Shown piece after piece: positions 14,965 to 47,678 of a stretch of 64,000 nucleotides of DNA; positions within the stretch are counted from its first letter, which is position 1, and every line of letters begins with the position of its first letter. The position numbers were made by a program, and so were the translations under genes. The DNA lies in NCBI GenBank assembly GCA_024998625.1, contig JACOEL010000019.1, positions 1-64,000 of the forward strand, in the 5' to 3' direction. The DNA is from Nitrospira sp. (lineage in GTDB: Bacteria; Nitrospirota; Nitrospiria; Nitrospirales; Nitrospiraceae). A model generated the notes under the pieces. That model had not been told where the DNA came from. It did no database searches and saw nothing but the letters and a program-made list of their open reading frames with translations.

Positions 14965-14980
14965 TGGCACTGGGTTTGCG
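14965..14980 (+). promoter_or_regulatory. Sigma-54 (-24/-12) promoter for the envelope/exoprotein cluster
   Basis: The sequence TGGCACTGGGTTTGCG matches the RpoN consensus TGGCAC-N5-TTGC: TGGCAC at 14965-14970 and TTGC at 14976-14979, with the GG and GC dinucleotides at the required spacing. The expected transcription start is about 14991, leaving a 5' leader of about 56 bases to the ATG at 15047, which has a strong ribosome-binding site (AAGGAGGGAG). A sigma-54 activator gene lies at the far end of the cluster, which supports the call. Confidence 0.7.
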
Positions 14981-15046
14981 ATAGCGAATACGCATTCAAT
15001 GTTGAGACGCCCACCACCGGTCGTCCATTCAAGGAGGGAGTACACC

Positions 15047-15751
15047 ATGCATGATCTCGATCGCACGCAAATGGAAACTGGGGACAGTGAATACTTCGAA
15101 GGTGAAGCATTCGAGTATCAAGAGACCGGAGACGCCTATGAAGGAGAGGCTGAATATGGGGAGGCGTATGAGATGGCGACGGCGGCCGCGAGTCCCTTTC
15201 AAGAACAGGAGGAGATGGAGTTTGCCGCCGAGTTGCTGGAAGTGACCAGCGAAGGAGAACTCGATCAGTTCCTTGGAAAGCTCATTCGCCGAGCGTCGAG
15301 GAAAGTTGGAGGATTCATCAAGAGTCCGGTCGGCCAGGCCTTGGGTGGGTATCTCAAAGGAGCCATCAAGAAAGCGTTGCCCTTTGCCGGCGCGCTGGGC
15401 GGATTCGTCGGTGGCCCGGCAGGCGCGGCTCTTGGCAATCGCCTGGCGCCAATGGCGGGCCGCCTGCTCGGCCTGGAGCTCGAAGGGCTGAGCCAAGAAG
15501 ACCAGGAGTATGAAGCCGCACGGCAATTAGTACGGTTAGCCGGCGCCGCGACGAGTCAAGCCGCGACGGCTTCTCCAGCCGCACCTCCGCAGGCCGTGGC
15601 CCAGAATGCGGTAGCGACGGCCGCGCAAGGCTATGCACCGGGCATGCTGAAGGGCGCGACGCCGTCCGGGACGAGGATGATGCCTGGTCGCCGCGGTAAA
15701 GGCGGGCGTTGGATCCGTCGCGGGGGCGTCATCATTCTGTTTGGAGTCTGA
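15047..15751 (+). CDS. Acidic-tailed Gly/Ala-rich protein, first gene of the F-E-A-E-P-F cluster
   Basis: A 234-residue protein of unknown function; the start at 15047 is fixed by AAGGAGGGAG at 15031-15040 (a longer frame from 14900 would include the sigma-54 promoter). The first 60 residues are very acidic and aromatic: EYFEGEAFEYQETG, then repeats like AYEGEAEYGEAYE, ending in a segment MEFAAELLEV. The middle is a basic, Gly-rich amphipathic stretch (GGFIKSPVGQALGGYLKGAIKKALPF, GALGGFVGGPAGAALGN) that resembles membrane-inserting peptides. The C-terminus is Ala-rich then basic (RRGKGGRWIRRGG). The protein ends two bases before the next gene. Its N-terminal acidic repeats are related in style to the F-E-A-E-P-F tags of genes 19120, 19850 and 21816. 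Confidence 0.7.
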   Translation: MHDLDRTQMETGDSEYFEGEAFEYQETGDAYEGEAEYGEAYEMATAAASPFQEQEEMEFAAELLEVTSEGELDQFLGKLIRRASRKVGGFIKSPVGQALGGYLKGAIKKALPFAGALGGFVGGPAGAALGNRLAPMAGRLLGLELEGLSQEDQEYEAARQLVRLAGAATSQAATASPAAPPQAVAQNAVATAAQGYAPGMLKGATPSGTRMMPGRRGKGGRWIRRGGVIILFGV

Positions 15752-15753
15752 AC

Positions 15754-17061
15754 ATGATTCCTCAAGCGATGGCAGCGGCGACGTTACTCCATGAAGCACA
15801 GGGGCTGCTCGGCCGGCTGGACCGCGTCAGGCCGTTCGCGTTGAGCGTGCCCATGGTATCCGCAGCCGGCGCGCCCCAGGCGCATGGCGCAATCGAGCAC
15901 TACGTGGCGGAAGGACGCCGGCAACTTCGGGGCATGATTCAAGCCTATATCCGCTGGCTCGGCGGTCCACTGGGACGCCTGGTCCCGCCGGCCGAGATGA
16001 ATCGGCGTTTCGTGTTCCTCCGGATGCGGTTCAATGCGTTATTATCCGACTTCGATATTTTTGCGGATGTGTTGACGCAGCGAAGCGAGCATGGCCTCGG
16101 GGTCTTGCTGGCAGGGCTGGACGCCTTCGCAGCCGATGCGTTGGCGATACCTGGCGCATTCTACAAGTCTCCGCCTGTCATCTGTTACTTGGACCGAGGC
16201 CCGGGGGCCGCCATTCGTCGAGCGCGCACCAGACTTCCGGGCGGGAGAGAGAATCCGGTAGCCATTATTCGGGTCCCCAGGGAGCGGATGGTCGGCAGCG
16301 GCATTGCCTCATCCCTTGTGCATGAAGTCGGTCACCAGGCGGCGAACATGCTGAATCTCGTCGCATCTCTGAAGATCATTCTCAAAGGCCTTCAACGGAC
16401 AGGGGGAACCATGCGCCTCGCGTGGACGCTCTGGGAACGCTGGATCTCGGAAATCGTCGCGGATCTCTGGTCGGTCGCGATGGTCGGGATTTCGTCGTCG
16501 CTAGGGTTGATGGGTGTGGTCAGCCTGCCGCGTTCCTTTGTATTCCGAGTTGCGCTGAACGATCCGCATCCGGTTCCCTGGATTCGCGTCAAGCTGAGCT
16601 GTGCCATGGGGCGGGCCCTGTATCCGGACCCTCAGTGGGATAGTGTCGCGAAGGTGTGGGAAGCATTCTATCCGACGACCGGCCTCGAAGCAGCCGGACG
16701 AAGGCTCCTGGCGATTCTGGAATCCACGATACCGAGCTTCGTCGATATTCTGCTGAATCATCGACCGAAGTTACTGCGAGGCAATTCATTGAAAGAAGCC
16801 TTGCCCGTCAACGAACGGCAACCGGCGCAACTGCGAAGGCTGTGGCAGGTGTGGCGGACAGAGGCGGCGCACATGCAAAGGGCCAGGCCGTCGCTCGTGT
16901 TTGCCGTACTGGGCCAGGCGAAGGTCGATGGACTGCTGGAGGCGGACCGAGAGAGCCGCATGGTCGGCGAGTTCTTGAAGCATTGGGCACTGGCACGTGG
17001 GCTGTGGTCGCTCGTGCCGTGCGACCAAAAGGTGCGGCCGGGGGTCTCAATCCTATACTGA
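15754..17061 (+). CDS. Putative gluzincin-type zinc metallopeptidase
   Basis: A 435-residue protein that I cannot place in a named family. The zinc motif HEVGH is at residues 190-194 (LVHEVGHQAANML), and a second motif ISEIVADLW puts Glu233 and Asp237 about 40 residues later, the ExxxD pattern of gluzincins. There is no signal peptide. The start at 15754, two bases after the previous stop and behind TTTGGAG, replaces a longer frame from 15709. The pair with 15047 looks co-translated. The regions around the site (ENPVAIIRVPRERM, RSFVFRVALNDPHPVPWIRVKLSCAMGRALYPD) are well formed, so the gene looks intact. Confidence 0.65.
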   Translation: MIPQAMAAATLLHEAQGLLGRLDRVRPFALSVPMVSAAGAPQAHGAIEHYVAEGRRQLRGMIQAYIRWLGGPLGRLVPPAEMNRRFVFLRMRFNALLSDFDIFADVLTQRSEHGLGVLLAGLDAFAADALAIPGAFYKSPPVICYLDRGPGAAIRRARTRLPGGRENPVAIIRVPRERMVGSGIASSLVHEVGHQAANMLNLVASLKIILKGLQRTGGTMRLAWTLWERWISEIVADLWSVAMVGISSSLGLMGVVSLPRSFVFRVALNDPHPVPWIRVKLSCAMGRALYPDPQWDSVAKVWEAFYPTTGLEAAGRRLLAILESTIPSFVDILLNHRPKLLRGNSLKEALPVNERQPAQLRRLWQVWRTEAAHMQRARPSLVFAVLGQAKVDGLLEADRESRMVGEFLKHWALARGLWSLVPCDQKVRPGVSILY

Positions 17062-17088
17062 ATCCGTCTTAAAAGGAGGCGCACACAC

Positions 17089-18999
17089 ATGGTCAATAGA
17101 AGAGAAGTAACACCAACAATCAGTGTTGATAACAAACAGACAGAGGTGGAAGAGGGCACGATCGTCAATTTATACATTGCTGATTTATATCAGCAATCGA
17201 GCACCCCGCCATCGCACCTCAGTCTCGATTTTAAGGCGCCCTTTCAAAGCGTGGTGCCTAGACTTGGCGAACTGTCTTGGGAGGAGAAGATACTGGTAGT
17301 TCCCTGGGACACAACCGACTTGAGTCCAGGGCTGTATAGTATTGCGTCCGCACAGGTGCACTTGGGCAAGAGCGAGGGACTAGCGGGGCAGTCAATAAAG
17401 GTTATTCCTGCAACGGATACTCTTGACCCGGCCTCAACTGGAACTCAACTAAATCCTCCAACGGTCAAAGTCAAAAAGCGAAGTCTCTCTCACGGGGATA
17501 ATGTACCCGTGACCATGCGCCGAACCGCGCAGATCGTTTCCAACGATCTGCCGTTGTGGCTCGTGATCAAGGGAAGCTCAGAAGCGTTATCCTTCGACAA
17601 TTACAAGAACCACATGGACTTGGTGCTGTGTGGCGTCCCGTTTCCGGGGGCGAAGAAGATCACCAAGGGTCCGGAGGCCACCAAGGAAGCATGCGCTGAT
17701 CTAAAGGGCAAACGGTTTCTCCCTTTTACCGATTCGGATGCATACCGCCTGCTTAAAGTTGCCACCGAAGCTTTCGTGATGACCAACTGCGGGGTGGCGC
17801 TTGGGGATTATGATTTCACGCAAGACGATACCGCCGAATTGCTCAGACGGGTCGAGGTCAGCGTTTCACGGCAGGAGTTGGGAACTATCTGGAAGGCCTA
17901 TCTGAAAAATGTGAATGGAACCCCAGATCTGCTTCTCCCCTATTTCCAGATCATCCAGCAGAAATTTCCAGATATCGCTCTCAAGGAAGATATCTTCTTC
18001 GACTACTGCCGCGTCTCGGATGACGAGGCGGATAGCTCTAAGAGAAGGTGCTACGGGCTTCTCAGAAAGAAACTCCAGGAGCCGTGCCTGCTTGAGCTTA
18101 TCTGGTCCTATTGGCAGGAAGAAGGCATGTTGGTGCAGACCGTGGGAGCCATTACCCAGCGTTTCCAGAACAAGAGAAGCGCGTCAGGTCAAGATCCCCT
18201 GGCCAATCTGGAGACCGATCCGCTGCGTCCGCTGAATAATCTCTTATGGGGCTACGTCCAGGACGAGATCCATCGTCTCACGGTGGTTCGCCGCGCCTAT
18301 GAGTACGATCATCACTACGGATTGCGGATATTCGGAAAGGCCATCCCCGAATTTCGTCCGGCGGATAGTCGCTCGAAATTCATCGAAGCGTTCCACAATC
18401 TCCTGAATCTCTGCACGAAGTTCTACAAGGGCGATGATGACACGACCGTCATCGCAGACGGCTTCCCAGTGCTCAATGCATTGAGAGATGTGCATCTCTT
18501 GTTGTCGGAAGGCGCCCACAATCAATTCGGTGATTTGCCGGCTACTGCGCGAACCGAGATGCTGATGCAGCAGTGGATGTTGGCACGTCCGGAGTTCCTC
18601 CAGTTTCTCCCGACACGCACCATGGTCGCCTATCCAGAGCCGTGGATGGACCGGGTAGATGCCATGAAGAAGCTCCAGGGATGGACTGACATCAATGTGC
18701 TGCACTTTAGAAACCTGGCCATGTTCGGAGAGCAGGTCCTCTTGTCGATCCGATATGGCGCGTGGGCCGACACATACGACCCCAAGCAGGCTGCGGGCTG
18801 GGCACGGTTCTGGCGAGCCGAGGTCCAGGGCTATGTGCATGCGTACCGTGCGGTCACAGGCGTCGATCTCAGCACCGACGTGGCGGGTAAGGTGGACATC
18901 ACCTTGCCGGCCGTCCATCTGCGTAATCGGTTGCTGAGCCAGACGCGGACTCCGCAAGAGCAGAACACGCTGACGATACCGCGCTCGCGCGTGAGTTAG
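17089..18999 (+). CDS. Large protein of unknown function in the exoprotein cluster
   Basis: A 636-residue protein with no family I recognise and no signal peptide. AAAAGGAGG at 17072-17080 fixes the start at 17089. Residues 1-120 look like a beta-rich domain (TISVDNKQTEVEEGTIVNLYIADLY, LGKSEGLAGQSIKVIPATD); the rest is mainly helical, with PLRPLNNLLWGYVQDEIHRLTVVRRAYEYDHHYGL near the middle (about residues 383-417). The first 120 codons are visibly richer in A+T than the rest of the gene and its neighbours, so the N-terminal domain may have been added by transfer. It lies 28 bases after the metallopeptidase gene. Confidence 0.6.
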   Translation: MVNRREVTPTISVDNKQTEVEEGTIVNLYIADLYQQSSTPPSHLSLDFKAPFQSVVPRLGELSWEEKILVVPWDTTDLSPGLYSIASAQVHLGKSEGLAGQSIKVIPATDTLDPASTGTQLNPPTVKVKKRSLSHGDNVPVTMRRTAQIVSNDLPLWLVIKGSSEALSFDNYKNHMDLVLCGVPFPGAKKITKGPEATKEACADLKGKRFLPFTDSDAYRLLKVATEAFVMTNCGVALGDYDFTQDDTAELLRRVEVSVSRQELGTIWKAYLKNVNGTPDLLLPYFQIIQQKFPDIALKEDIFFDYCRVSDDEADSSKRRCYGLLRKKLQEPCLLELIWSYWQEEGMLVQTVGAITQRFQNKRSASGQDPLANLETDPLRPLNNLLWGYVQDEIHRLTVVRRAYEYDHHYGLRIFGKAIPEFRPADSRSKFIEAFHNLLNLCTKFYKGDDDTTVIADGFPVLNALRDVHLLLSEGAHNQFGDLPATARTEMLMQQWMLARPEFLQFLPTRTMVAYPEPWMDRVDAMKKLQGWTDINVLHFRNLAMFGEQVLLSIRYGAWADTYDPKQAAGWARFWRAEVQGYVHAYRAVTGVDLSTDVAGKVDITLPAVHLRNRLLSQTRTPQEQNTLTIPRSRVS

Positions 19000-19119
19000 C
19001 CCTGCAAGGACCGGTTCAATCGGGCGGCGTTGAGAGCGACTGTTGCCGCCCGATTTTGACTGAGGCACCGTTGGACGAGGTCACCGAAGGTGGCGGGATC
19101 TCGGGAGAAGGAGCGCGAT

Positions 19120-19815
19120 ATGAGACCGTCATTTACATTTGAAGCCGAGCCGTTTGGCGCCTTTGGGGAAGAGGGGGAACTTGAACGATCCAGGGTGCGC
19201 CGTCCTGCCGTGAGACGGCGTCCCCTGAAGATTCGTCCGCCAACGGCGAAAACCCCAAAGCGGCCGTGGCCTTCGAAACTGCCAACGCTTCCCGGGCGGA
19301 GGCCGCCGGTCATGGTGTTTCCCCCGCCGTTCCGTGGCGTGCGAACCCCGCCATGGCCACCGGCTGAAGATCAGCCATCGACGGAACCTGCCTCTCCAAC
19401 GCCGGAACCCACATCATCGGCCGGAGGAACCGGCGGCGATACGGCCGCATCTGCACCAGCGGAGACCTGCCGGCCGCCGACGGTGCTGCACAACTTTGGA
19501 GCCGGCAGCGCACAGCTACAACCGGGCCACCACGCCACGCTGGCGCGGTTAGCCGACAGTCTGAAGCGATCACCGGCATCGGACTTGGTGTTGACCATTG
19601 AAGGGCATACGGACGGATCGCCGGGAGAAGGCTCGAGGCGATCCCTGGCGCTTCAACGCGCGCTGGCGGTGGCGAAGTTTCTCGCGGATCGCGGCTTGGA
19701 CATTGAGACCGTCACCCGGTCGTTTCACGGTAGTCAACCCGTCGCCTCCGATGCGACGGCGGAGGGGCGACAACGTAATAGGCGGGTCGCAATCCGGATC
19801 TGTCAACGACAATGA
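19120..19815 (+). CDS. OmpA-like domain protein with F-E-A-E-P-F N-terminal tag
   Basis: A 231-residue protein. The first residues are MRPSFTFEAEPFGAFGEEGE, the tag shared with genes 19850 and 21816. A basic, Pro-rich linker follows (residues 25-115). The C-terminal OmpA/MotB-type domain begins HNFGAGSAQLQPGHHATLARLADSL and continues with LTIEGHTDGSPGE, RSLALQRALAVAKFLADRGLD and RQRNRRVAI, where the Asp and Arg that bind meso-diaminopimelate are present. It should bind peptidoglycan but it has no signal peptide of normal type, so the tag may direct export. The start at 19120 has GAAGGAG seven bases before; the frame from 19090 is less likely. Confidence 0.75.
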   Translation: MRPSFTFEAEPFGAFGEEGELERSRVRRPAVRRRPLKIRPPTAKTPKRPWPSKLPTLPGRRPPVMVFPPPFRGVRTPPWPPAEDQPSTEPASPTPEPTSSAGGTGGDTAASAPAETCRPPTVLHNFGAGSAQLQPGHHATLARLADSLKRSPASDLVLTIEGHTDGSPGEGSRRSLALQRALAVAKFLADRGLDIETVTRSFHGSQPVASDATAEGRQRNRRVAIRICQRQ

Positions 19816-19849
19816 CACCATCTGTCGATAGACAACGATGAGATGAATC

Positions 19850-20527
19850 ATGCGGTATGCACTCGCATTCGAAGCGGAGCCATTTGAGATTCAGCCGAAG
19901 GGTGGTGAATTCACTCCGACACCTGTGGAACGCAGCGGCGGAGGCCGCATCAAGGACAAACGTGCTCCCAATCCCACCGATGTCGTGACTGTGGCGGGAT
20001 ACCAGAAGCGTCGGGTTCCATTACATCGTCTGGCCGCCGAGGCCTGGCGCGCGCTGGTCGCAGTGGCGCGTGCCGACGGGATCGCAGCGCCGCTTCTGTT
20101 GCCGATGTCGGGGTTCCGGGATCCGAAGCGGCAAGAACAAATTTGGCGCAAAGCCCTGGTGAGATACGGATCACCACAAGCAGCGCGCAAGTGGGTCGCC
20201 CCACCTGGCACGAGCGCGCACCAAAGCGGGCGGGCGATTGATTTCTATATCGGACTGGCCATTTCGAGCAAGAATGCCGCAAGGATGAGAAATCTGCCGG
20301 CCTATCGTTGGCTGGTGAAGAATGCCGAGCGGTTTGGCTTCTACCCATACGAACGCGAGCCGTGGCACTGGGAATACAACCCACCGGCAACACGCGAAGC
20401 TGAGCTTGCGGCTGAGACATACGAAGAAGAATGGCAAGGGGCCGAGGTCTATGAGGATGAAGGAGTTGGGGAGACATTTGAAACCTGGGAGACGGGAAGT
20501 TGTCCGACGTGTGGGCACAGCATGTAA
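19850..20527 (+). CDS. VanY-like D-alanyl-D-alanine carboxypeptidase with F-E-A-E-P-F tag
   Basis: A 225-residue protein. It opens MRYALAFEAEPFEIQPKGGEF, then a linker, then a peptidase M15B (VanY) domain: LPMSGFRDPKRQEQIW near residue 84, GTSAHQSGRAIDF at about residues 120-132 (zinc His and Asp) and EPWHWEYN near residue 173 (catalytic Glu/His). These enzymes trim D-Ala from peptidoglycan stems. The C-terminal 45 residues are acidic with repeated ETYEE and YEDEGVGETFETWETG, then a zinc-ribbon-like end, CPTCGHSM. It lies 34 bases after the OmpA-like gene. Peptidoglycan is the common substrate of the pair. Confidence 0.78.
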   Translation: MRYALAFEAEPFEIQPKGGEFTPTPVERSGGGRIKDKRAPNPTDVVTVAGYQKRRVPLHRLAAEAWRALVAVARADGIAAPLLLPMSGFRDPKRQEQIWRKALVRYGSPQAARKWVAPPGTSAHQSGRAIDFYIGLAISSKNAARMRNLPAYRWLVKNAERFGFYPYEREPWHWEYNPPATREAELAAETYEEEWQGAEVYEDEGVGETFETWETGSCPTCGHSM

Positions 20528-20575
20528 GGGCCACGTGCGCCGCGCAGGTGGTCGACCATCGTAGCGAGGATCGCC

Positions 20576-21460
20576 ATGAGATGCCGGTGTGGACAATTAG
20601 CACAGGGAGCAAGAGCGCTGCCTCCCTCAGCGGCAGCGACGGAATGGGAACTCAAGGGAGCATCGAGCGAGACGTCCGCCCCGCGCTTGCTCAAGCAGGA
20701 AACGCAACCTCCCGCGCAATCCTTGTATGTGAATATTTCGCTCGGCACAGAAAGCCCGGCGCGGCCAATGACTGGCATCTTTCTACCGTCAGGCTATCGA
20801 CCACAGATCCAGGCGGACCTGATTCTCTACCTCCACGGGTACAAGTTGTATGGCTACAACTCACGGATGAGCATTGACTCCTATTGGAACAAAGCACGCG
20901 TACCCTATTTTCCGCTTCGAGAGGGACTGAACGACGCCGGGAAAAATGTCATTCTTGTGGCCCCTACGTTGGGCCCCAAATCTCAAGCCGGGTGGCTGCT
21001 GAGACCCAATGGCTTAGATCGCTATCTCGATCGGGTCTTGCTCGCCCTCATGAGCCACGGGCCGTACAAGGGGATCCCCCAATCGCCAAGGATCGGGAAC
21101 ATTGTTCTGGCCTGCCATTCCGGCGGCGGGAGTCCCATGCGCCGGCTAGCGCTCAGCACGCAACGGTATGCCCCTCATATCCGCGAGTGCTGGGGATTCG
21201 ATTGTCTCTACAACGGCGGCGATCCAGATCTCTGGGCAACGTGGGCTTCTCAAGACCCACGAAGACGGCTGTATATGTATTACCTGCGCAGCACCGAGCG
21301 GTTGTCCAAGAAACTCCAAGCCAAGAACCTGCCGAATGTGGTCGTGCGGCAATCGTCACGAGGGCATAACTGGGTGCCGATCAATCATTGGAAAGAGCGG
21401 ATAAAAAACGCGACCGCTTTTCACAACTCTTCGGAGTCGACCGTGCCCTTTTCCGAATAG
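20576..21460 (+). CDS. Putative alpha/beta-hydrolase fold protein of the exoprotein cluster
   Basis: A 294-residue protein. Hydrolase-fold marks are LILYLHGYKLYGYN (strand and oxyanion loop), NVILVAPTLGP, and the nucleophile elbow ACHSGGGSPMRRLAL, where Ser lies in the pattern C-H-S-G-G; a late His in SSRGHNWVPINHW could complete a triad. The first residues MRCRCGQLAQGA are Cys-rich and recall the CPTCG end of the preceding gene, which may mean a split or shared zinc-binding piece. No signal peptide is seen. The substrate is unknown: an esterase or a peptide amidase are equally possible. Confidence 0.55.
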   Translation: MRCRCGQLAQGARALPPSAAATEWELKGASSETSAPRLLKQETQPPAQSLYVNISLGTESPARPMTGIFLPSGYRPQIQADLILYLHGYKLYGYNSRMSIDSYWNKARVPYFPLREGLNDAGKNVILVAPTLGPKSQAGWLLRPNGLDRYLDRVLLALMSHGPYKGIPQSPRIGNIVLACHSGGGSPMRRLALSTQRYAPHIRECWGFDCLYNGGDPDLWATWASQDPRRRLYMYYLRSTERLSKKLQAKNLPNVVVRQSSRGHNWVPINHWKERIKNATAFHNSSESTVPFSE

Positions 21461-21639
21461 GAGACCATATATTGACCAGACCACCAATCTCAGAGCACGA
21501 CTTCTGCATCATCTCTGGTGCACCGAGCATTTGGATGTGCATACAGGGAGTTATCAAATGTTCATCGGCACACGGCTACATGCAACGAGGCCGGAGCTGA
21601 GAGCGGAGGACAGTCGAATGACCGCTGTTCTGAGGCTGC

Positions 21640-21739
21640 GCTGTCATCCCTGCTGAACAAGCTCCTTGGCCTCCAACTGACCGTGGACGGCACTTACGGC
21701 TTTGCCATCCGCAGCTCAAAAAACGAGATGGACTGCTAG
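21640..21739 (+). pseudogene. Remnant of a peptidoglycan-binding (PG_binding_1) domain gene
   Basis: The 355-base gap 21461-21815 has no full gene. Within it the plus strand encodes SLLNKLLGLQLTVDGTYGFAIRSS, which matches the core of peptidoglycan-binding modules (pattern LN.LLGL.L.VDG..G..TRS), before a stop at 21739. Nothing upstream in the frame looks like the rest of such a protein. I read it as the leftover of a further cluster member that also bound peptidoglycan. This rests on one short motif. Confidence 0.4.
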
Positions 21740-21815
21740 ACACTGCCATCTTTGGACCTAGTACCGGACATACACTCATGCTCATGCAGCAATGGCGAGC
21801 ACAACGGAGGTCGAT

Positions 21816-22865
21816 ATGTCTCTAACACCCATATTTGAAGCCGAGCCATTCGAGTTTGCTTGGGAAAAGTATGAGGCTCATTCTGAATTTGAAGCGGGGA
21901 CTCATCCAACCTTAGGCCCTGGACGTCGCATACCCCGTCAAGGCGAAATCACGGACCTCGAAACGCCAATCACTGCCTATCATCCCTCGCTGGGACCTGG
22001 GCGGCGTATCCCACGTACCGCAGCAGAGATCGAAAGCGAACAAGAGATAATCGGGCTGGACGAACGCAAGCTTGTTATGACCACCAAAGACGTGCCCTTT
22101 CGTTGGATCTGCGCGCTTGACCTCCTCTTCCCTGATCCAGACGATCCGGCGGCATATCTAGCATTCATCGGCTCAGGCACGTTGATCAGCCCACGTCATG
22201 TGCTAACCGCAGGACATTGCCTCTACGCCCGGATTACAGGCTCGGCGGGAACGCGGGCAGTTGTCCAGGTCGAGCGAACGCGTGTCCGCCCCGGTCGCAA
22301 CGGCAGTCAATCCCCATTCGGGCTCGCCATATCCGGTGCCGTGCATTACTCCGCTAACTGGCGCGCCTCGCGAGATTTTCGCTTCGACTATGGTCTGATC
22401 ACCTTGAGCGGGGATATTGGCTCGAAGAAAATGTCGGCATTAGATGGCAATCACTTAGGATATTGGGGCAGTCGTTCTCACGGCAGCGGCACGCGGATCC
22501 ATCCCAAGGAGCGCGATTTCTTGCAGGGGAAGCCCGTCAATATCTCGGGGTATCCAGCCGACAAGCCGTTGGGCACCCAATGGCGGTCTTACGGAACTGT
22601 GACGAATTCGCGACCAGTGGCCGGTCCCCAGCTTATCTACTACGACTTAGACACCTGTGGTGGCCATAGCGGTAGTCCCGTCTGGCTGCGCTCACAACAA
22701 TTCCGAAACTTGGTTGCCATCCACACCGGACCGTGCGTCACCAACACGGACTGCCAAGCGGTCGCAGGCCCACCATGTTTTCCAGGCGGACAGCGATTTT
22801 CAACGAATCGCGGTGTGCTCATTACTGCCGGTGTGTTGAGCGATATCAATCGGTGGATGGCGTAG
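21816..22865 (+). CDS. Trypsin-like serine protease with F-E-A-E-P-F tag
   Basis: A 349-residue protein starting MSLTPIFEAEPFEFAW. The start at 21816 has GGAGG at 21806-21810; the frame from 21792 is less likely. After the tag there are two copies of a short repeat, HPTLGPGRRIPR and HPSLGPGRRIPR (about 35 residues apart). The protease domain follows: LTAGHC (His134), RFDYGLI (Asp191) and GGHSGSPVW (Ser285), the triad of the S1 (V8-like) family. It should act outside the cytoplasm. The repeats may be a cleavable propeptide or a docking piece. It lies after the remnant of the peptidoglycan-binding gene. Confidence 0.8.
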   Translation: MSLTPIFEAEPFEFAWEKYEAHSEFEAGTHPTLGPGRRIPRQGEITDLETPITAYHPSLGPGRRIPRTAAEIESEQEIIGLDERKLVMTTKDVPFRWICALDLLFPDPDDPAAYLAFIGSGTLISPRHVLTAGHCLYARITGSAGTRAVVQVERTRVRPGRNGSQSPFGLAISGAVHYSANWRASRDFRFDYGLITLSGDIGSKKMSALDGNHLGYWGSRSHGSGTRIHPKERDFLQGKPVNISGYPADKPLGTQWRSYGTVTNSRPVAGPQLIYYDLDTCGGHSGSPVWLRSQQFRNLVAIHTGPCVTNTDCQAVAGPPCFPGGQRFSTNRGVLITAGVLSDINRWMA

Positions 22866-22998
22866 AGGGACAGCTAGAGCACAGTTTGAAGCCCAAATCC
22901 GGCGGTATCGGCATTCGGTTCCTAGAGGAGTCGACGGACTGGCCGCTCATGCCGCGCCACAGGACGGCACCGCCGAACTTCTAGAATGGGGACTCCCC

Positions 22999-23835
22999 AT
23001 GATCATCGATTGCCATTGCCACGCGGGAGCGGGAGACGGACTGACCGGTCCATGGGATACCCGCGCGCCCTTGGATAAATATATGCGACGGGCTGCTCGC
23101 GCTGGGATCAACTGCACTGTGCTGCTGGCGGCGTTTCATTCCGACTACCGCCGGGCGAATCGTGAAGTGGCTCGCATTGTCGCAAGCCGTCCCGAGCGCT
23201 TCTATGCTTTCGCCTTCGTGCATGCGGAGCGGGACCGTGGCCGTATCCATTCGATGGTCTATGAGGCAGTGCATCGATTCGGGTTTATCGGAATCAAGGT
23301 CCACCGTCATGATGCCCGGATCACGCGGGAAATCTGTGAGGTGGCGCGGGCCTTCCGTCTGCCCGTGCTCTATGACGTAATGGGCGAGGTGTCTGTCTGC
23401 GAGCTACTGGCGCAAGAATACTCTGATGTGAATTTCATCATTCCGCATCTCGGTAGCTTCGCCGATGATTGGCGGGCGCAATCGGCATTGATCGATCATC
23501 TGGCCCGGCATCCCAATATCTATACCGACACAGCCGGGGTGCGGCGGTTCGATTTGCTTGAGCAGGCCGTGAAACGAGCGGGCGCTAAAAAAGTACTGTT
23601 CGGGTCCGATGGGCCCTGGCTTCATCCCGGCGTTGAGCTTGCCAAAATCTACGCGCTGCGTTTGCCTGACAGTGAAGAAGCCCTCATGTTGAGTCGCAAC
23701 TTTCTGAGACTGATCTCATCCATCCGCCGGTATCCTGTGCGATCTACTGGTGTCGCCAGCCGTGCTCCCGACGGGATTGGCGTCTCCAGCGAGGTCCACG
23801 ATCCCTGGGCCGGTGAGCAATTTGCTTGCTGCTGA
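22999..23835 (+). CDS. Amidohydrolase (TIM-barrel metal hydrolase)
   Basis: A 278-residue protein of the amidohydrolase 2 type. Metal-binding residues are visible as DCHCH near the N-terminus, KVHRHD in the middle, IPHLGSF and FGSDGPW toward the C-terminus, the last carrying the catalytic Asp. The true substrate is not readable; relatives include decarboxylases and lactonases. The final 35 residues (SSIRRYPVRSTGV to the end) do not look like the family and may be a new C-terminal extension or a frameshifted end. It is the last plus-strand gene before the convergent sigma-54 activator and lacks the tag, so its membership in the system is uncertain. Confidence 0.68.
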   Translation: MIIDCHCHAGAGDGLTGPWDTRAPLDKYMRRAARAGINCTVLLAAFHSDYRRANREVARIVASRPERFYAFAFVHAERDRGRIHSMVYEAVHRFGFIGIKVHRHDARITREICEVARAFRLPVLYDVMGEVSVCELLAQEYSDVNFIIPHLGSFADDWRAQSALIDHLARHPNIYTDTAGVRRFDLLEQAVKRAGAKKVLFGSDGPWLHPGVELAKIYALRLPDSEEALMLSRNFLRLISSIRRYPVRSTGVASRAPDGIGVSSEVHDPWAGEQFACC

Positions 23836-24076: not shown

Positions 24077-25453
24077 TCAGCAATGGAATTGCCCGTTGGG
24101 AAAGCGGCCCGCAGCCTGGCGCAGTTGTAATGCGCGATCAGTCACCCTTAATCGAGCCGCGGCACGTTGCAGACTGCCCTGTTCGTCTCCTATCGCAATG
24201 CGTACCGCAACATTCTCTGCCATCCGTCCGATGTCCTTCAGGCCGAACCCCCGTGCGATGGCGTTACGAATGCAGCGTTCGAACTCTTGATTAGACCATT
24301 CCCGCTGTTCTTCAACGGCCTCCGGTCGTTCCCCCTCCGGTAGGCAGCCAGCCGAAATAGGTCCAACTCCCGCATAATGGCTCATGATTCTCATGGTCAG
24401 TTGTTTCAACTCCCGTATGTTGCCCGGATATGCCCGGAGCGTGAGATATTCCTTCATCGTCTCGTCGAACTCGGGTGGATCCCGGTCAGGCACCAGTGAC
24501 CGTATGAAATGACGAGCCAGTGGAAGAATGTCGTCGTCCCGCTCACGTAACGGCGGTATGGTGAACAGATCGCCCGCGAGCCGGTAGTACAGATCACTAC
24601 GGAAACGACCCTTCCCAATGTCTTGCTTCAGGTTCCGATTGGTCGCGCAGATCAAACGGAACTCGCTGCGATGCCAGGTGTTGCCCCCCACTCGCTTATA
24701 GGAATGTTCTTGAATCGCGCGAAGCAACTGCCCTTGTAAGCCCAGGGGGAGCTCTCCCACCTCGTCCAAAAACAAGGTGCCGCCATTGGCTCGTGAAAAG
24801 GCGCCGTCCCGCGCGGTGATCGCTCCAGTGAACGCCCCTCGCTCATGGCCGAAGAACTCACTGCCTGAAAGCTCAGGGACGACCGTTGTGCAATCGAGGA
24901 CAATCAAATCACCTTTGTTCGCGCGCTGGTCCAGAGAATGAATGAGGCGCGCGGCAAGTTCCTTCCCAGTCCCGCTCTCTCCCGTCAGGAGGATCGTCGA
25001 ATCGGTGAAGTACGCAGCCTCCACCAGCTGCCGGAGTACGTTCAATGCTGCTGGGCTTCGGCATACCAATGTGTCTCGAACCTCTGAAGCTGTGACCAGC
25101 TGATCGATAGTTTTCCATCGCGCCAGTCGTGCCGCGACTGCGTGCGCAGTCCGATCCGGATCCTCCCAGCCTAGGACATCGCAGGCGCCAGCCCTTAAGA
25201 GCTTCCAAACAATTGATTGCGACAAGCCTCCTGGTAGAAGGCTGATGGCGATAATCCTGTGAAGCCCAGCTTCCCGCGCATCTTGTAGAAAGTTCTGCAG
25301 ATCGGGGTCACAGTCTTGGAATATGACTAGGCCGGGTCCGGATGGAAGATGCTGCAGGGGGCATAGCTCAACGCCTGCTCGCTGAAACGCATCAAGGAAG
25401 TTGTGGGCAACCTTAGAAGTGCCGCCACCAAAAAAGCGGTGCCACCCACGCAT
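24077..25453 (-). CDS. Sigma-54-dependent transcriptional activator (NtrC-like, degenerate receiver)
   Basis: A 458-residue enhancer-binding protein. Residues 1-130 resemble a receiver domain in layout but lack a clear phospho-acceptor Asp, so activation may not be by phosphorylation. The AAA+ domain has Walker A LLTGESGTGKE near residue 155, the sigma-54 contact loop GAFTGA near 205, Walker B GGTLFLDEVGELP and the sensor region ATNRNLKQDIGKGRFRSDLYYRLAGDLFTIPPLRER. A Fis-type HTH ends the protein (SLQRAAARLRVTDRALQLRQAAG). It converges on the amidohydrolase gene and is the natural activator for the sigma-54 promoter at 14965. Confidence 0.87.
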   Translation of the reverse strand: MRGWHRFFGGGTSKVAHNFLDAFQRAGVELCPLQHLPSGPGLVIFQDCDPDLQNFLQDAREAGLHRIIAISLLPGGLSQSIVWKLLRAGACDVLGWEDPDRTAHAVAARLARWKTIDQLVTASEVRDTLVCRSPAALNVLRQLVEAAYFTDSTILLTGESGTGKELAARLIHSLDQRANKGDLIVLDCTTVVPELSGSEFFGHERGAFTGAITARDGAFSRANGGTLFLDEVGELPLGLQGQLLRAIQEHSYKRVGGNTWHRSEFRLICATNRNLKQDIGKGRFRSDLYYRLAGDLFTIPPLRERDDDILPLARHFIRSLVPDRDPPEFDETMKEYLTLRAYPGNIRELKQLTMRIMSHYAGVGPISAGCLPEGERPEAVEEQREWSNQEFERCIRNAIARGFGLKDIGRMAENVAVRIAIGDEQGSLQRAAARLRVTDRALQLRQAAGRFPNGQFHC

Positions 25454-26487: not shown

Positions 26488-26808
26488 ATGGCGAGATCGA
26501 GACGACCGGAATTGGAGAAAGATAACCCGACCGCTCCGCAGCTCTATGTCGGGCCTCGGAGAAGAAGCGCCCTGTCCCGTAGGGACTTGGCATTACGTCC
26601 ACCTGCGCCGGACGGAATGGCGGCAGCAATGCAGACGTTGATGTCGGCAGCGGAAGAGTTCGTGAACGGCGTGCCCTATGTGCAGGAGTTGGACAAGGAG
26701 CGGAACGCCCTGTTGGAGGCGATCACGCAGGCGCAGACCCTGTTGTCGGCCGAGCACGTGTCTGTCACGCGACCGGCGAAGAAGAAGCAGGAACGGCAGG
26801 CGCGTTAG
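26488..26808 (+). CDS. Small protein of unknown function
   Basis: A 106-residue protein with an Arg/Pro-rich N-terminus and a helical C-terminal half (FVNGVPYVQELDKERNALLEAITQAQTLL) that could form a coiled coil. It is unlike any family I know. The start is preceded by CTGGAGGAATA. Its stop overlaps the stop of the convergent sensor kinase gene by two bases. The composition and the close spacing make it look real. Confidence 0.45.
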   Translation: MARSRRPELEKDNPTAPQLYVGPRRRSALSRRDLALRPPAPDGMAAAMQTLMSAAEEFVNGVPYVQELDKERNALLEAITQAQTLLSAEHVSVTRPAKKKQERQAR

Positions 26809-28250
26809 TTCACTGGATGGCCTTCAGGCGGGCGGCCAAGGGGCAAGCGGATCGTAAATTCCGCCCCTTTTCCAGGCTGAGTCTCGACGGAGACCGTTCC
26901 CCCGTGCGCCTCGACGATACCCTTTACAATAGCCAGCCCTAAGCCTGTCCCTCCGGACTCCCGCGCCCTGGCCTTGTCCGCCCGATAAAACCGGTCGAAG
27001 AGGAACGGCACATGTTCCGCCTCGATTCCGGGGCCTGTGTCCCGGACCGCAATCTCAAGAAATCCATCGGAACAGCGGAGACGAACCGTGACCGAGCCGC
27101 CGGGCGGCGTATACTTCAGGCTATTGTCCAATAGATTGATCAAGGCCTGTTTCAACCACTGCGCGTCCGCCGAAATCGTGGGTACGGGCACCACATCGAG
27201 GGCAAGTGAAATCCGGCGGTCATCGGCCAGCAGCTTCAGCTCGATGATCAGTTCATGAAGCAGGGGTTCCAGTTCGAGCGGAGCGAGTTGCAACGGCGGC
27301 CGATCGCCGGTGACTTTGGTGAGCGTCAACAGGGACCTCGCCAGCGCGATCAGTTTCTCCACCTGTTCCAGGTTCCCGATGAGTGCTTCACGATACTCGT
27401 CGGTAGATCTGGCCTTTTGAAGCGTGACTTCCAGATTCCCCTGCAACACGGTCAGCGGCGTCTGCATTTCGTGAGCGGCGTAATCGACAAACCGGCGCTG
27501 GCTCTCGCAGCTTTTCTGGAACCGGTCCATCATGGCGTTAAAGGTCTGTGTCAGCCGGTGGAATTCTTGAAACGGAGAATCGAGAGATAGTCGCTCGCCC
27601 AGGTCTGCCTCCGACATGGTTTCCGCTCGCCGGCTCAAGAGACCGATCGGCGTCAGGACCGTTCGCGCGATCCATGCGCTGCCGGCCCAGGCCACGACGA
27701 TGACAAGGCCCGAGCCGAGCGCCAACAGGATCGCAAGCCCCTTCAGCGTTTCCTGCGAAAAGTGAAGCGACTCCTCCGCCTGCAACATATACCGGACCTG
27801 GCCGCTCCTGGGCACGGGGATCGAGACGCGACGCACAGGAGAACCTTCGCGCAGCCGCACCATATCGAAAACGGTCTGGCCCTGCTTGACCTGTTCGAGG
27901 AGGGAAGCCGACACGGGAGGCCGAGGCACCACATCGGACCCCTTCCACAGCAGCTGTCCGTCGATCGACAAGATCCGGACACTATGCGCAGCCTCCCGGA
28001 GTTCATGTTGCTCTTCCTGACTGCGGCCTTTCTCTCCCAAGACGACCAGCTCGTCCCCGGCCCCGCGGATCACATCCGGACGCTGTTCGATAATACGGCC
28101 CAATGTTTCCGCAAGTTCAAGCAGGCGCCCATCGACATAACGACTCAGCAGCGTCTCGCCGCCGACATAAATCAGCGCCGAAAACCCGAGGAGCAGCCCT
28201 CCCATCAGGATCAGCGCCGTCCGGCGGATCAGGCGTCCCAGTGAATTCAC
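26805..28250 (-). CDS. Sensor histidine kinase, HAMP-containing
   Basis: A 481-residue two-component sensor. Layout: membrane segment 1 (residues about 11-30, ALILMGGLLLGFSALIYVG), periplasmic sensor of about 140 residues, membrane segment 2 (about 170-192, LAILLALGSGLVIVVAW), a HAMP linker (TPIGLLSRRAETMSEADLGERL), the phospho-acceptor motif DYAAHEMQTPL with His near 260, and an ATPase domain with NLLDNSLKYTPPGG, DTGPGIEAEHVPFLFDRFYR and GGTGLGLAIVKGI. Its start overlaps the response regulator stop by four bases, so the two form an operon. The signal sensed is not known. Confidence 0.92.
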   Translation of the reverse strand: MNSLGRLIRRTALILMGGLLLGFSALIYVGGETLLSRYVDGRLLELAETLGRIIEQRPDVIRGAGDELVVLGEKGRSQEEQHELREAAHSVRILSIDGQLLWKGSDVVPRPPVSASLLEQVKQGQTVFDMVRLREGSPVRRVSIPVPRSGQVRYMLQAEESLHFSQETLKGLAILLALGSGLVIVVAWAGSAWIARTVLTPIGLLSRRAETMSEADLGERLSLDSPFQEFHRLTQTFNAMMDRFQKSCESQRRFVDYAAHEMQTPLTVLQGNLEVTLQKARSTDEYREALIGNLEQVEKLIALARSLLTLTKVTGDRPPLQLAPLELEPLLHELIIELKLLADDRRISLALDVVPVPTISADAQWLKQALINLLDNSLKYTPPGGSVTVRLRCSDGFLEIAVRDTGPGIEAEHVPFLFDRFYRADKARARESGGTGLGLAIVKGIVEAHGGTVSVETQPGKGAEFTIRLPLGRPPEGHPVN

Positions 28251-28930
28251 CGTCCGGCGTCCTCATCTTCCAGCATATAGCCGGCCCCCCGCACGGTCGT
28301 GATCAACGCGGGGGAAAAGTCGCGATCCATCTTCGCCCGCAACGACCGGATATGCGCATCCACGATATTCGTCATCGGGTCATAACTGATATCCCACACG
28401 TGCTCGATGATGGCGGTCCTGGTCAGCACACGATTCTTGTTCCGCAAGAGAAATTCGAGCAGTGCGTACTCCTTGTTCGTCAGCGCGATTTCATTGCCGC
28501 TCCTGCACACCCGGTGAGTCGCCGGATCCAGCTCCAGGTCGGCAGCCGTCAGCCGGGCCTGCAGTTGAGGCCCGCCCCGCCGCAACAGGGCTCTCGCTCT
28601 CGCCAGGAGTTCTGCGAAGGCAAACGGCTTCGTCAGATAATCATCGGCGCCCAGGTCCAAACCCGAGACCTTGTCCTGCACCGTATCGCGTGCGGTCAAC
28701 AGCAAGACAGGCGCCGTCACGCCCGTGCTGCGCAGACGACGACAGAGTGAAAGACCATCGAGCACAGGCAGCATGATATCCAGGATGATGAGATCGTACG
28801 GATTCGCGATACCGAGTTCGAACCCCTGCTCGCCCTGGCAGGCGACGTCCACCGCATAGCGCTCTTCCTTCAGGCCCTTTCGGATGAATTGCGCCAGATC
28901 AGCATCATCTTCGACGAGAAGAATGCGCAT
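28247..28930 (-). CDS. OmpR-family response regulator
   Basis: A 227-residue regulator starting MRILLVEDDADLAQ; the frame from 29017 is an extension of low quality. The receiver domain carries EDD near residue 7, the phospho-acceptor Asp in LIILDIMLPVLDG, and Lys in YLTKPFAFAEL. The C-terminal winged helix contains LTNKEYALLEFLLRNKNRVLTRTAIIEHVWDI and the DNA-recognition end VRGAGYMLED. It is the first gene of the pair with the sensor kinase. Confidence 0.93.
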   Translation of the reverse strand: MRILLVEDDADLAQFIRKGLKEERYAVDVACQGEQGFELGIANPYDLIILDIMLPVLDGLSLCRRLRSTGVTAPVLLLTARDTVQDKVSGLDLGADDYLTKPFAFAELLARARALLRRGGPQLQARLTAADLELDPATHRVCRSGNEIALTNKEYALLEFLLRNKNRVLTRTAIIEHVWDISYDPMTNIVDAHIRSLRAKMDRDFSPALITTVRGAGYMLEDEDAGR

Positions 28931-29172
28931 ACCGATACATGCTCCATCGAACGATCGAAGGGTGAAGAAACCAGTAGACTGCGATCTTCCCGTGGCCGGG
29001 CCAATCGTCATCATCATACTAATACATTAGCCCGCCTCGATTCGATCAACGAGAAAGAAGAGGAAGAAAAGAAGCTCGGACGAGCAGGCAGGCGCACCTG
29101 AATGCTGGAACCAGGAACTCAGATGGTGCCCGACGACCGGAGGAAGCTCAACCGCTCATCTGCCCGCCGTCT

Positions 29173-37425: not shown

Positions 37426-39126
37426 TTACCTTGTGGTAAACGGAGGCAGTTCAGGAATTTCTCCGAGTAAATAACGTCCCAGCAACCGGGCCTGCACTTC
37501 CAGCACTCGGCGGTAACTGATCTGATATCCGAACACCGGGTGGGTAATCTCCTGGCCCATGCGCCGCTCGTAGGTTTCGATCAAGCGACGGCGGCCCTCC
37601 GGCGTGAGCGTGACTGATCCCATGCGTTCAAACCAATCGCTCTGCTGAATCTCGCCGTTGTTGATAGCGGTCAGGACAGCGGAATCGGCAATGAGCGGAC
37701 GGAATTCTTCCATCATGTCGAGTGCCAAGGCCGGTCGCCCGTAGCGCGGTTGGTGATAAAAACCCAAATAAGGATCGAGCCCCACGCTCTGCAGGGTGAC
37801 GGTCCACTCGCGCGCCAGCATGGAATAGAGCAGCGACAGCATGGCATTGACTGGGTCACGTGGCGGGCGGCGATTGCGCCCGTCGAAATCGAAACGTGCC
37901 CCAGGCTCGGCCTCTTTCAACATGCCAGAGAATTCTGAAAAATACCGGCGTGCCGCTGTGCCTTCCACGCCCAGGAGTGACTCCAGGGATTCAGTGACAC
38001 CGGCGTGGGTCTGATCATTTTTCAGATCCTGAATGACCGTGTCCGGCGCCGCCCGGTGATTACGCCGCAGCAACGTACGACAGTTGGCAATCTTAGCCTG
38101 CACGAATCGCCTCGCGAGTTGCAGACAGCGTTCACGATCTGCCGCAACTGCGTATTGCCTCCGTCGAAGCTCCACATGTTTGTGCAGCAAGCCGGTCGTC
38201 ATGCCGTAGAACCAACCGCCGCTGGAACAGTACACCAGCGGAATATTGCGCTTGCAGAGTTCCTGTACCACCTGCGTGCTCACCTGCACCGCGCCGTACA
38301 GCACAACTTGCGACGTTTCGACCAGCCTGGCTTCGCCGATCACGTCATCGTGATCTTTGACCTTCAAGCACTCCCCGTCTTTGCCCAGCTTCGCGCCGGG
38401 TGTCTGGATATAGAGCGGCAAGGCATCGTCGTTGGTGGGGATGAGCTTTCGAAGCACCGGCATGTCGTCATTGTGCGGTTGCCGTAACCAGCCAACCTCG
38501 TCCGGCAGACAGAGGCCTACGAGCGAGCAACGCGGGCACTTGGGGCTGTCTACCAAGGGCGGCGGCGCAATCGTTGCCTGCGTCATTGTCCGCATGCCGT
38601 CGAGGAGTTCCTGCGTCCGCGTAACCAACTCATCGTCGAACGGCACTTCCACTCGCTCGCGCGAGCCGACAAAGTAGAGCACTCCGCGCTCGCAGGTGAA
38701 GCCTTGTTCACGAAGCAACAACCCCTGCACACAGAGTTGTACCCTTTCCGGTTCCCACGCGCCTTGCGCCGTATGCGGCCGCTTGCCGCGCTTGTAGTCC
38801 ACTGGAACGACCGCCTGGCCCTCGCCTTCGACGAGGTCGATCTTGGCCGTCACACCGAGGCCCTCCGAAGACAACCAGACGGAGCGTTGATGGATCGTGG
38901 TTTCTCCCGACTCCTGACTCTCAGTCTGTCTCGATTTCCGGACCGGTGCCTGGTCCACGCGCCGGTGGTGAAATCGCCCCTCGGTGGTTTCCGCGTTGTC
39001 GGCGAACTCCCCGTCTACCCACTCGAAGTAGGCCAGACGTGGGCAGTAGGCACACTCGTTGACCATCCGGGCGGGGAGCAACGGGATGTCGCCCCCCGTG
39101 GATGGCCCCTGTGATTCAGTGTCCAT
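37426..39126 (-). CDS. cas4-cas1: Cas4-Cas1 fusion protein
   Basis: A 566-residue fusion typical of type I-G (I-U). Residues 1-215 are Cas4, a RecB-type nuclease with an iron-sulfur site (NECAYCPRLAYFEW near the N-terminus and CPRCSLVGLC near residues 198-207), an Asp/Glu-Lys core (VDLVEGEGQAVVPVDYKRGK). Residues about 245-566 are Cas1: VVLYGAVQVSTQVVQELCKR, SLLGVEGTAARRYFSEF (metal Glu), GFYHQPRYGRPALALDMMEEFRP (His and Asp). Cas4 selects PAM-bearing ends; Cas1 inserts them. It is followed by cas2. The fusion rather than separate genes fixes the subtype. Confidence 0.96.
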   Translation of the reverse strand: MDTESQGPSTGGDIPLLPARMVNECAYCPRLAYFEWVDGEFADNAETTEGRFHHRRVDQAPVRKSRQTESQESGETTIHQRSVWLSSEGLGVTAKIDLVEGEGQAVVPVDYKRGKRPHTAQGAWEPERVQLCVQGLLLREQGFTCERGVLYFVGSRERVEVPFDDELVTRTQELLDGMRTMTQATIAPPPLVDSPKCPRCSLVGLCLPDEVGWLRQPHNDDMPVLRKLIPTNDDALPLYIQTPGAKLGKDGECLKVKDHDDVIGEARLVETSQVVLYGAVQVSTQVVQELCKRNIPLVYCSSGGWFYGMTTGLLHKHVELRRRQYAVAADRERCLQLARRFVQAKIANCRTLLRRNHRAAPDTVIQDLKNDQTHAGVTESLESLLGVEGTAARRYFSEFSGMLKEAEPGARFDFDGRNRRPPRDPVNAMLSLLYSMLAREWTVTLQSVGLDPYLGFYHQPRYGRPALALDMMEEFRPLIADSAVLTAINNGEIQQSDWFERMGSVTLTPEGRRRLIETYERRMGQEITHPVFGYQISYRRVLEVQARLLGRYLLGEIPELPPFTTR

Positions 39127-39242
39127 AACACCCCTATCGGTCAGAGGTCTGGAAATATTCAGTTGTCAAAGAACCGTCAACGCCTGAAGAGATCAGACGT
39201 TCTGTTATAAGGAATGCCATTGTCAGAATTCGGGAGGCCCAC

Positions 39243-39446
39243 ATGGAATATCCGATCGTCATCGAACCAGACCTCGAGGCCGGCGGTTATGTCGTGTCCT
39301 GTCCGACCTTGAAAGGATGCATTTCACAAGGCGAGACCGAAGAGGAAGCCTTGGAGAACATCAAGGATGCTATCAAAACCTACCTCGAAAGCATCGAGGA
39401 TCTGAAGCGCCTCAAAAAGTTACGCACTGTCGAAGTCAGCGTATGA
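39243..39446 (+). CDS. hicB: HicB-type antitoxin, copy 2
   Basis: A 67-residue HicB-like protein nearly identical to the one at 33121, with changes such as KGCISQGE for KGGVSQGE. It lies on the plus strand between the divergent cas4-cas1 gene and the end of the large helicase gene. A 22-codon frame follows at 39443-39511 (MTKLPQILEAAEI, ending FKELL), overlapping the stop by four bases as hicA would, but it is too short to be HicA. The same short start follows copy 1. Both copies and their flanks form imperfect direct repeats of about 230 bases. Confidence 0.8.
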   Translation: MEYPIVIEPDLEAGGYVVSCPTLKGCISQGETEEEALENIKDAIKTYLESIEDLKRLKKLRTVEVSV

Positions 39447-39560
39447 CGAAGCTGCCGCAGATTCTGGAAGCCGCAGAGATCCCGGCAGACCGGTTCAAAG
39501 AGCTGCTCTGAAAATTTTCCCCTACGCCTTATAGGGTCCGTCCGCACACTCTCATGGCCG

Positions 39561-39640
39561 CTGCGCGCCATGTATTCCCGGGCGGGCATCCCAGGGTACT
39601 GGATCGTCAATCCCGCCGATTGCTGTCTGGGGGTGACTCA
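39561..39640 (+). pseudogene. Uma2-like (DUF820) nuclease remnant
   Basis: The plus strand reads MYSRAGIPGYWIVNPADCC, which matches the core of Uma2-family PD-(D/E)XK proteins (pattern YxRAGIPEYWIVN). Nothing else of the family is seen before or after. The interval 39512-39708 is otherwise empty and separates hicB copy 2 from the helicase stop. A short decayed remnant is the best reading. Confidence 0.45.
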
Positions 39641-39708
39641 ACGCATACTCATCGCTCATCACAGTTAGAACTTGCTCCCTCTACGAGTCATACGTAACTC
39701 CGGCCGTT

Positions 39709-45000: not shown

Positions 45001-45035
45001 ATGCCTTCCCTGCGGTTTTGTTCTATTTCAAGTCT

Positions 45036-47656: not shown

Positions 47657-47678
47657 CACCATGTCCCTCCTTCAACAG

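What the first reader, a model, noticed from the sequence alone, without database searches (positions are those of the whole stretch)
14965..23835. Exoprotein cluster sharing an F-E-A-E-P-F N-terminal tag, under sigma-54 control
Three adjacent genes with unrelated catalytic folds begin with the same motif: FTFEAEPFGAF (OmpA-like, 19120), LAFEAEPFEIQ (VanY-like peptidase, 19850) and PIFEAEPFEFA (trypsin-like protease, 21816). The first gene (15047) has related acidic/aromatic repeats (EYFEGEAFEYQ). None of these has a normal signal peptide, yet OmpA-like, VanY and PG-binding modules act on the cell wall outside the cytoplasm. A shared tag on unrelated domains suggests a common sorting, loading or partner-binding signal of an export system. 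A zincin-like protease, a large unknown protein and an alpha/beta hydrolase lie among them. I know of no named system with this set.
Basis: partly seen in the sequence, partly recalled or inferred. Interest (0 to 1): 0.85.

Follow-up and report, generated by a model that had tools for sequence, protein, structure and literature searches.

The report
Tagged wall-enzyme locus, swappable payloads
A bacterial gene cluster, found in distantly related environmental bacteria, puts the same short N-terminal tag on otherwise unrelated wall-cutting, protein-cutting and DNA-cutting enzymes and keeps them next to three protein families that the databases do not recognise, which points to an undescribed way of handling or delivering proteins.

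Summary
Three adjacent window genes with unrelated domains (OmpA, VanY/M15, trypsin) carry F-E-A-E-P-F at residues 7-12, without signal peptides. Their DNA similarity is confined to the tag, so they are not recent duplicates. A -24/-12 sigma-54 site lies exactly at 14965.

The tag is not confined to this genome. Variants (F-x-x-E-P-F) occur 6-9 residues from the start of cargo proteins in Rhizobium and other genomes, always beside the same core: A (acidic/aromatic N-terminus, glycine zipper, C-terminal RWxRRGxxI), B (zincin HEVGHQ...EIxAD) and C. No core family has a significant Pfam, NCBIfam, PADLOC or PDB match. An AONS-like enzyme, an amidohydrolase and a sigma-54 activator are usual companions. 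A never occurred without B in 788 genomes.

Cargo is mostly peptidoglycan-directed, plus proteases, GIY-YIG nucleases and hydrolases. One tagged family has 66-84% identical N-modules carrying exchanged C-terminal domains, as in polymorphic toxins. Immunity genes are absent; contractile injection genes do not co-occur.

Best reading: a sigma-54-controlled polymorphic exoprotein system whose tag is a docking or delivery signal read by the A-B-C core. Export is not shown; lysis-release is the main rival.

The parts
14965..14980 (+). Candidate sigma-54 (-24/-12) promoter TGGCACTGGGTTTGCG
   Evidence: Only + strand site with 2 or fewer mismatches in the window; comparable sites upstream of gene A in L002 (1 mismatch), L040 (0), L041 (1), L038 (2)
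15047..15751 (+). A: acidic/aromatic FExExF N-terminus, glycine-zipper segment, C-terminal RWxRRGxxI motif; core
   Evidence: Alignment of 16 homologues; found only in B-bearing loci
15754..17061 (+). B: zincin-type protein (HEVGHQ ... EIVAD); core
   Evidence: H190, E191, H194, E233, D237 invariant in 14-17 homologues; AF2 model pLDDT 82
17089..18999 (+). C: large protein with conserved helical C-terminal domain and variable N-terminus; core
   Evidence: 11 homologues at 41-55% identity; distant syntenic counterpart
19120..19815 (+). Tagged cargo 1: MRPSFTFEAEPF + Pro-rich linker + OmpA domain
19138..19155 (+). FEAEPF tag of cargo 1
19850..20527 (+). Tagged cargo 2: MRYALAFEAEPF + VanY (M15) + acidic tail ending CPTCG
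   Evidence: M15 cargo also in L041 and L042
19868..19885 (+). FEAEPF tag of cargo 2
20576..21460 (+). Alpha/beta hydrolase (GHSGGG-type), untagged; a homologous domain is fused inside the tagged L002 cargo
21518..21739 (+). Decayed peptidoglycan-binding remnant (SLLNKLLGLQLTVDGTYG...)
21816..22865 (+). Tagged cargo 3: MSLTPIFEAEPF + trypsin-like protease
   Evidence: relatives in L011, L001, L039, L045, L046
21834..21851 (+). FEAEPF tag of cargo 3
22999..23835 (+). F: amidohydrolase (PF04909), recurrent member of the unit
24077..25453 (-). G: sigma-54 enhancer-binding activator (GAFTGA present), recurrent member of the unit
   Evidence: PF00158 E=5e-55; homologues in the clusters

Best explanation
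The locus is a sigma-54-switched, horizontally spread polymorphic exoprotein system. G, with RpoN, turns on the operon from the site at 14965 (inferred from the site and the adjacent activator). The operon makes core proteins A, B and C plus variable cargo enzymes without signal peptides, mostly peptidoglycan-binding or wall-cleaving, with proteases, nucleases and hydrolases. The N-terminal F-E-x-E-P-F tag, a single-copy version of the acidic/aromatic repeats at the N-terminus of A, is a docking signal that brings cargo to the same A-B-C assembly (inferred from strict association, position and domain swapping). The zincin B most likely matures or releases the clients, and the glycine-zipper part of A most likely inserts into a membrane (both inferred from motifs only). 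The cargo then acts on a cell envelope, the producer's or a neighbour's.
For: Tag specific to the cluster: 7/60 versus 0/168 ORFs; 37-genome pattern search. Tags sit 6-9 residues from the start on OmpA, M15, trypsin, PGB+DUF2272+hydrolase+glucosaminidase (L002), PGB+muramidase+amidase (L088), PGB+GIY-YIG-like and PGB+A-module proteins. N-module/C-domain exchange: 66-84% identical N-modules with mostly unrelated C-parts; L088's N-module is nearest L039 (83%) while its C-part matches L010. A-module fused to tag+PGB+OmpA in L038 and to an NlpC/P60-like peptidase in L044. A in 11 of 788 genomes, always in a B-bearing locus. Sigma-54 site and activator; RpoN in all 15 genomes tested. No signal peptides.
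Against: No recognisable translocon, and export was not observed. C could not be modelled (pLDDT 43) and B has no clear fold match. No tag was found in the Paraburkholderia locus L004, and the alpha/beta hydrolase in the window carries none. The most divergent clusters (L042-L047) use other acidic N-terminal motifs rather than FExEPF. The glycine-zipper segment is only mildly hydrophobic (1.29 over 19 residues).
Confidence: 0.5

Rival explanations
1. A controlled self-lysis cassette: A acts like a holin, and the tagged wall hydrolases, assembled on A through the tag, act like endolysins. Lysis releases the proteases, nucleases and hydrolases.
For: Cargo is rich in endolysin-type domains (M15, muramidase, amidase, glucosaminidase, NlpC/P60, PG_binding; PHROG endolysin hits). 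No immunity genes, which self-lysis does not need. No translocon. Tight sigma-54 switch.
Against: A has no strongly hydrophobic helix. No tagged cargo in L004 and no wall-enzyme domain in the L040 candidate. Not found in viral contigs or phage records. Does not explain the conserved zincin B and protein C.
Confidence: 0.2
2. The tag is a leader-like recognition site for enzymes of the cluster (B, the AONS-like D, amidohydrolase F) that cleave or modify the clients, rather than a delivery signal.
For: A peptidase, a PLP enzyme and an amidohydrolase recur beside the tagged genes; short conserved leader in otherwise unrelated proteins.
Against: D is absent in the window and F is not found in some loci (L040, L041) although tags or acidic N-termini persist; no modification-enzyme family known for such leaders was matched.
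Confidence: 0.1
3. An intracellular anti-phage or abortive-infection locus in which the cargo acts on the producer's own cell.
For: Proteases, caspase, nuclease and hydrolase domains; a CRISPR-Cas locus lies 12 kb away; activator resembles the AAA-HTH part of RtcR/PspF models.
Against: No PADLOC model is matched by A, B or C. Most cargo binds or cleaves peptidoglycan, which is outside the cytoplasm.
Confidence: 0.07
4. Cargo for a contractile injection system (eCIS or T6SS) loaded through the N-terminal tag.
For: eCIS effectors use N-terminal loading peptides (PMC11495950); OmpA-type payloads are known in PVC systems (PMC3482391).
Against: The baseplate family PF04965 is found in only 4 of 15 cluster genomes against 9 of 15 related genomes without the cluster; no tail genes near the core.
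Confidence: 0.03

Closest known systems
Polymorphic toxin systems (Zhang et al. 2012, PMC3482391)
   Same: Conserved N-terminal trafficking part with exchangeable C-terminal enzymatic domains; overlapping domain set (OmpA, peptidoglycan-binding, caspase, zincin, nucleases)
   Different: Short FExEPF tag, separate A-B-C core proteins, no immunity genes, no recognised secretion machine
PVC/eCIS effectors (PMC11495950, PMC3482391)
   Same: N-terminal loading signal on unrelated payloads; OmpA-type payloads; many lack immunity genes; a zincin-type HExxH protein is involved
   Different: No tail, sheath or baseplate genes in most cluster genomes; the zincin B is a separate protein, not a domain of the cargo
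PEP-CTERM/EpsH (exosortase) sorting system (PMC1569441)
   Same: A short shared motif on many unrelated proteins, sporadic distribution in environmental bacteria, sigma-54 promoter and activator
   Different: N-terminal acidic tag instead of a C-terminal PEP-TM-basic domain; no signal peptides; no exosortase in the cluster
Phage holin-endolysin lysis modules
   Same: Wall hydrolases without signal peptide next to a small glycine-rich, possibly membrane-active protein
   Different: Shared tag, zincin and C proteins, non-wall cargo; not found in phages

Membership tests
Polymorphic toxin system | Conserved N-terminal module with recombined C-terminal toxin domains | tested here: met
   Five tagged PGB proteins: N-modules 66-84% identical, C-parts unrelated in most pairs and exchanged between lineages
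Polymorphic toxin system | Adjacent immunity genes | tested here: not met
   Window gaps of 121, 35, 49, 356 (decayed PGB gene) and 134 bp leave no room for one after each cargo; none seen in the ORF lists of L038, L039, L088, L089 (ORFs of 100 aa or more)
Polymorphic toxin system | Delivery through a recognised secretion system | tested here: inconclusive
   No signal peptide, no contractile co-occurrence; other systems not tested
eCIS/PVC or T6SS effector | Contractile machinery in the same genome | tested here: not met
   PF04965 in 4 of 15 cluster genomes, 9 of 15 controls
PEP-CTERM/EpsH sorting | C-terminal Pro-Glu-Pro, TM helix and basic cluster on the sorted proteins | tested here: not met
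   C-termini read directly: none of the window cargo ends this way
Sec/Tat-exported exoproteins | N-terminal hydrophobic signal peptide | tested here: not met
   Hydropathy of first 40 residues at most 0.5 in tagged genes; no dedicated predictor was available
Holin-endolysin lysis module | Holin with transmembrane helices | tested here: inconclusive
   Glycine-zipper segment of A reaches only 1.29 over 19 residues
Holin-endolysin lysis module | Peptidoglycan hydrolase | tested here: met
   M15, muramidase, amidase, glucosaminidase cargo
Zincin (gluzincin-like) metallopeptidase (protein B) | HExxH plus downstream ExxxD | tested here: met
   H190, E191, H194, E233, D237 invariant across 14-17 homologues
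Zincin (gluzincin-like) metallopeptidase (protein B) | Zincin fold | tested here: inconclusive
   AF2 pLDDT 82; no significant PDB match by Foldseek or VIA-align
Sigma-54 regulated operon | -24/-12 promoter, GAFTGA activator, RpoN in the genome | tested here: met
   transcription itself not tested

The most novel reading that the evidence does not exclude
A previously undescribed protein-delivery system: core proteins A, B and C form a new apparatus, unrelated to any numbered secretion system, that recognises an N-terminal acidic/aromatic tag and delivers polymorphic envelope-targeting enzymes.
Probability: 0.4. Interest if true: 0.92.

Novelty: new variant of a known kind. Interest (0 to 1): 0.76.

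Why it matters
If the tag is a delivery or docking signal, it defines a new sorting code that can be searched for genome-wide, with three unassigned protein families as its likely readers. It would add a delivery or release route in planctomycetes, rhizobia and the window's own phylum, and explain how signal-less wall hydrolases and nucleases reach their targets. It is directly testable with tag fusions and single gene deletions.

Tried and rejected
AlphaFold2 of C with 13 sequences gave pLDDT 43, unusable. B gave a good model, but Foldseek found nothing significant and VIA-align only helical-bundle matches to residues 1-103; the expected zincin folds were not listed, which does not exclude them. 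PDB sequence searches with A, B and C gave nothing meaningful. Recent tandem duplication rejected: DNA similarity stops at the tag. eCIS/T6SS cargo rejected by co-occurrence. Phage origin: no relative of B in viral contigs or phage records. Literature searches for the motif letters and for the domain combination found no description; the library is open-access only. The first pattern search for FEAEPF found nothing because it fixed TTC for Phe; the degenerate pattern replaced it. The one genome-contig scan with a single protein returned only one locus.

Full report
Observation. The first gene (15047-15751) begins with the related acidic/aromatic repeats. The three genes share DNA similarity only over the tag itself, so the tag is conserved as protein and is not the trace of a recent duplication. 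No signal peptide is visible by hydropathy.

Is it more than chance? In 11 related loci, F-x-x-E-P-F near the start occurs in 7 of 60 ORFs inside the blocks and in none of 168 outside (p=7e-5; both sets are mechanical ORFs). The DNA pattern for F-E-x-E-P-F scanned over 37 genomes clusters only in the tagged loci of the window's genome (3 of 5 hits) and of G200 (4 of 5). Elsewhere there are 0-2 scattered hits per genome (3 in G148), mostly internal to or outside likely genes, at about the control rate.

Relatives. Homologues of the 15754 protein were found in Rhizobium, Ensifer and Paraburkholderia megaplasmids, a Gemmataceae genome, and sporadically in the window's phylum (7 of 396 genomes, one a fragment) and in the phylum of the Gemmataceae genome (10 of 392). 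The order is conserved: A, B, C, then a BioF/AONS-like PLP enzyme D (absent here), cargo genes, often a second A-type gene with a CxC motif, an M20 peptidase in some loci, amidohydrolase F, and a convergent sigma-54 activator G. Sporadic presence across distant phyla indicates horizontal spread (inference). A was found in 11 of 788 genomes, always in a locus with B (against 30, 31).

Core proteins. A combines an acidic, aromatic N-terminus, an AAELLEVxSExELDxFLG motif, a glycine-zipper segment and a C-terminal RWxRRGxxI motif. B has the invariant HEVGH...E...D residues of a zincin. C has a conserved helical C-terminal domain with a divergent, syntenic counterpart in other clusters. None has a significant match in Pfam, NCBIfam or PADLOC; PHROGs gave only weak hits for A; PDB sequence searches gave nothing meaningful.

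Cargo. Tagged or syntenic cargo carries OmpA, M15/VanY, trypsin, PG_binding_1, glucosaminidase+DUF2272+alpha/beta hydrolase, muramidase+amidase and GIY-YIG (L003 above the Pfam cut-off; L010, L039 and L088 by motif reading only). In more divergent clusters there are PhoD, NlpC/P60-like, caspase and subtilase proteins. L038 fuses tag, peptidoglycan-binding and OmpA parts to an A-module, linking cargo and A physically.

Domain swapping. Five proteins share a tagged N-module of about 165 residues at 66-84% identity but carry, in most pairs, unrelated C-terminal parts. L088's N-module is closest to L039 (83%) while its C-part matches L010's (local score 659, shuffled maximum 58). This is the pattern of polymorphic toxins: a constant delivery part and exchangeable payload.

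Regulation. TGGCACTGGGTTTGCG at 14965 is the only + strand site with two or fewer mismatches in the window. Comparable sites precede gene A in L002, L040 (perfect), L041 and L038, against an expected 0.018 such sites per 400 bp. G has the GAFTGA motif; RpoN is present in all 15 cluster genomes tested. L001, L003 and L011 showed no site with three or fewer mismatches.

Mechanism. Shown: strict association of tag, cargo and A-B-C; N-terminal position; domain swapping; no signal peptides; sigma-54 features. Inferred: the tag docks clients onto the same assembly as A; B processes or releases them; A reaches a membrane; the cargo acts on cell envelopes. Delivery (best) and lysis-release (main rival) are not separated by sequence. 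Known contractile machines are disfavoured by co-occurrence, and classical polymorphic toxins by the lack of immunity genes.

Comparison and novelty. It works like a polymorphic toxin system combined with a sorting tag, but it is not a member of either: immunity genes, a recognised secretion machine and the PEP-CTERM features are missing. I file it as a new variant of a known kind, with a 0.4 chance that the core is a categorically new delivery apparatus. The literature available here is open access only, and a described but unlisted system cannot be excluded. The identity of the window's organism was not given and was not established.

Noticed in passing
window 37426-53270, minus strand: Type I CRISPR-Cas locus: fused Cas4-Cas1, Cas_GSU0053, Cas3 with C-terminal HD domain, unassigned 534-aa and 836-aa ORFs, and a 1763-aa ORF (39709-45000) not examined.
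   Followed up: no
window 21518-21739: Decayed peptidoglycan-binding gene between the hydrolase and trypsin genes, suggesting cargo turnover.
   Followed up: partly
L043, L044, L047: Divergent clusters where large A-type proteins share the N-terminus GLERELELYMGEE; a caspase (L044, L047) and a subtilase (L047) lie next to them.
   Followed up: partly
L045 and L046: Another divergent B-bearing cluster with trypsin, DUF4438 and several unassigned proteins in conserved order.
   Followed up: no
L001:7791-9998: In the Gemmataceae genome gene A carries two tandem copies of the glycine-zipper module in one ORF.
   Followed up: no
window 26805-29017, minus strand: Histidine kinase and response regulator pair next to the sigma-54 activator; relation to the cluster not tested.
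   Followed up: no
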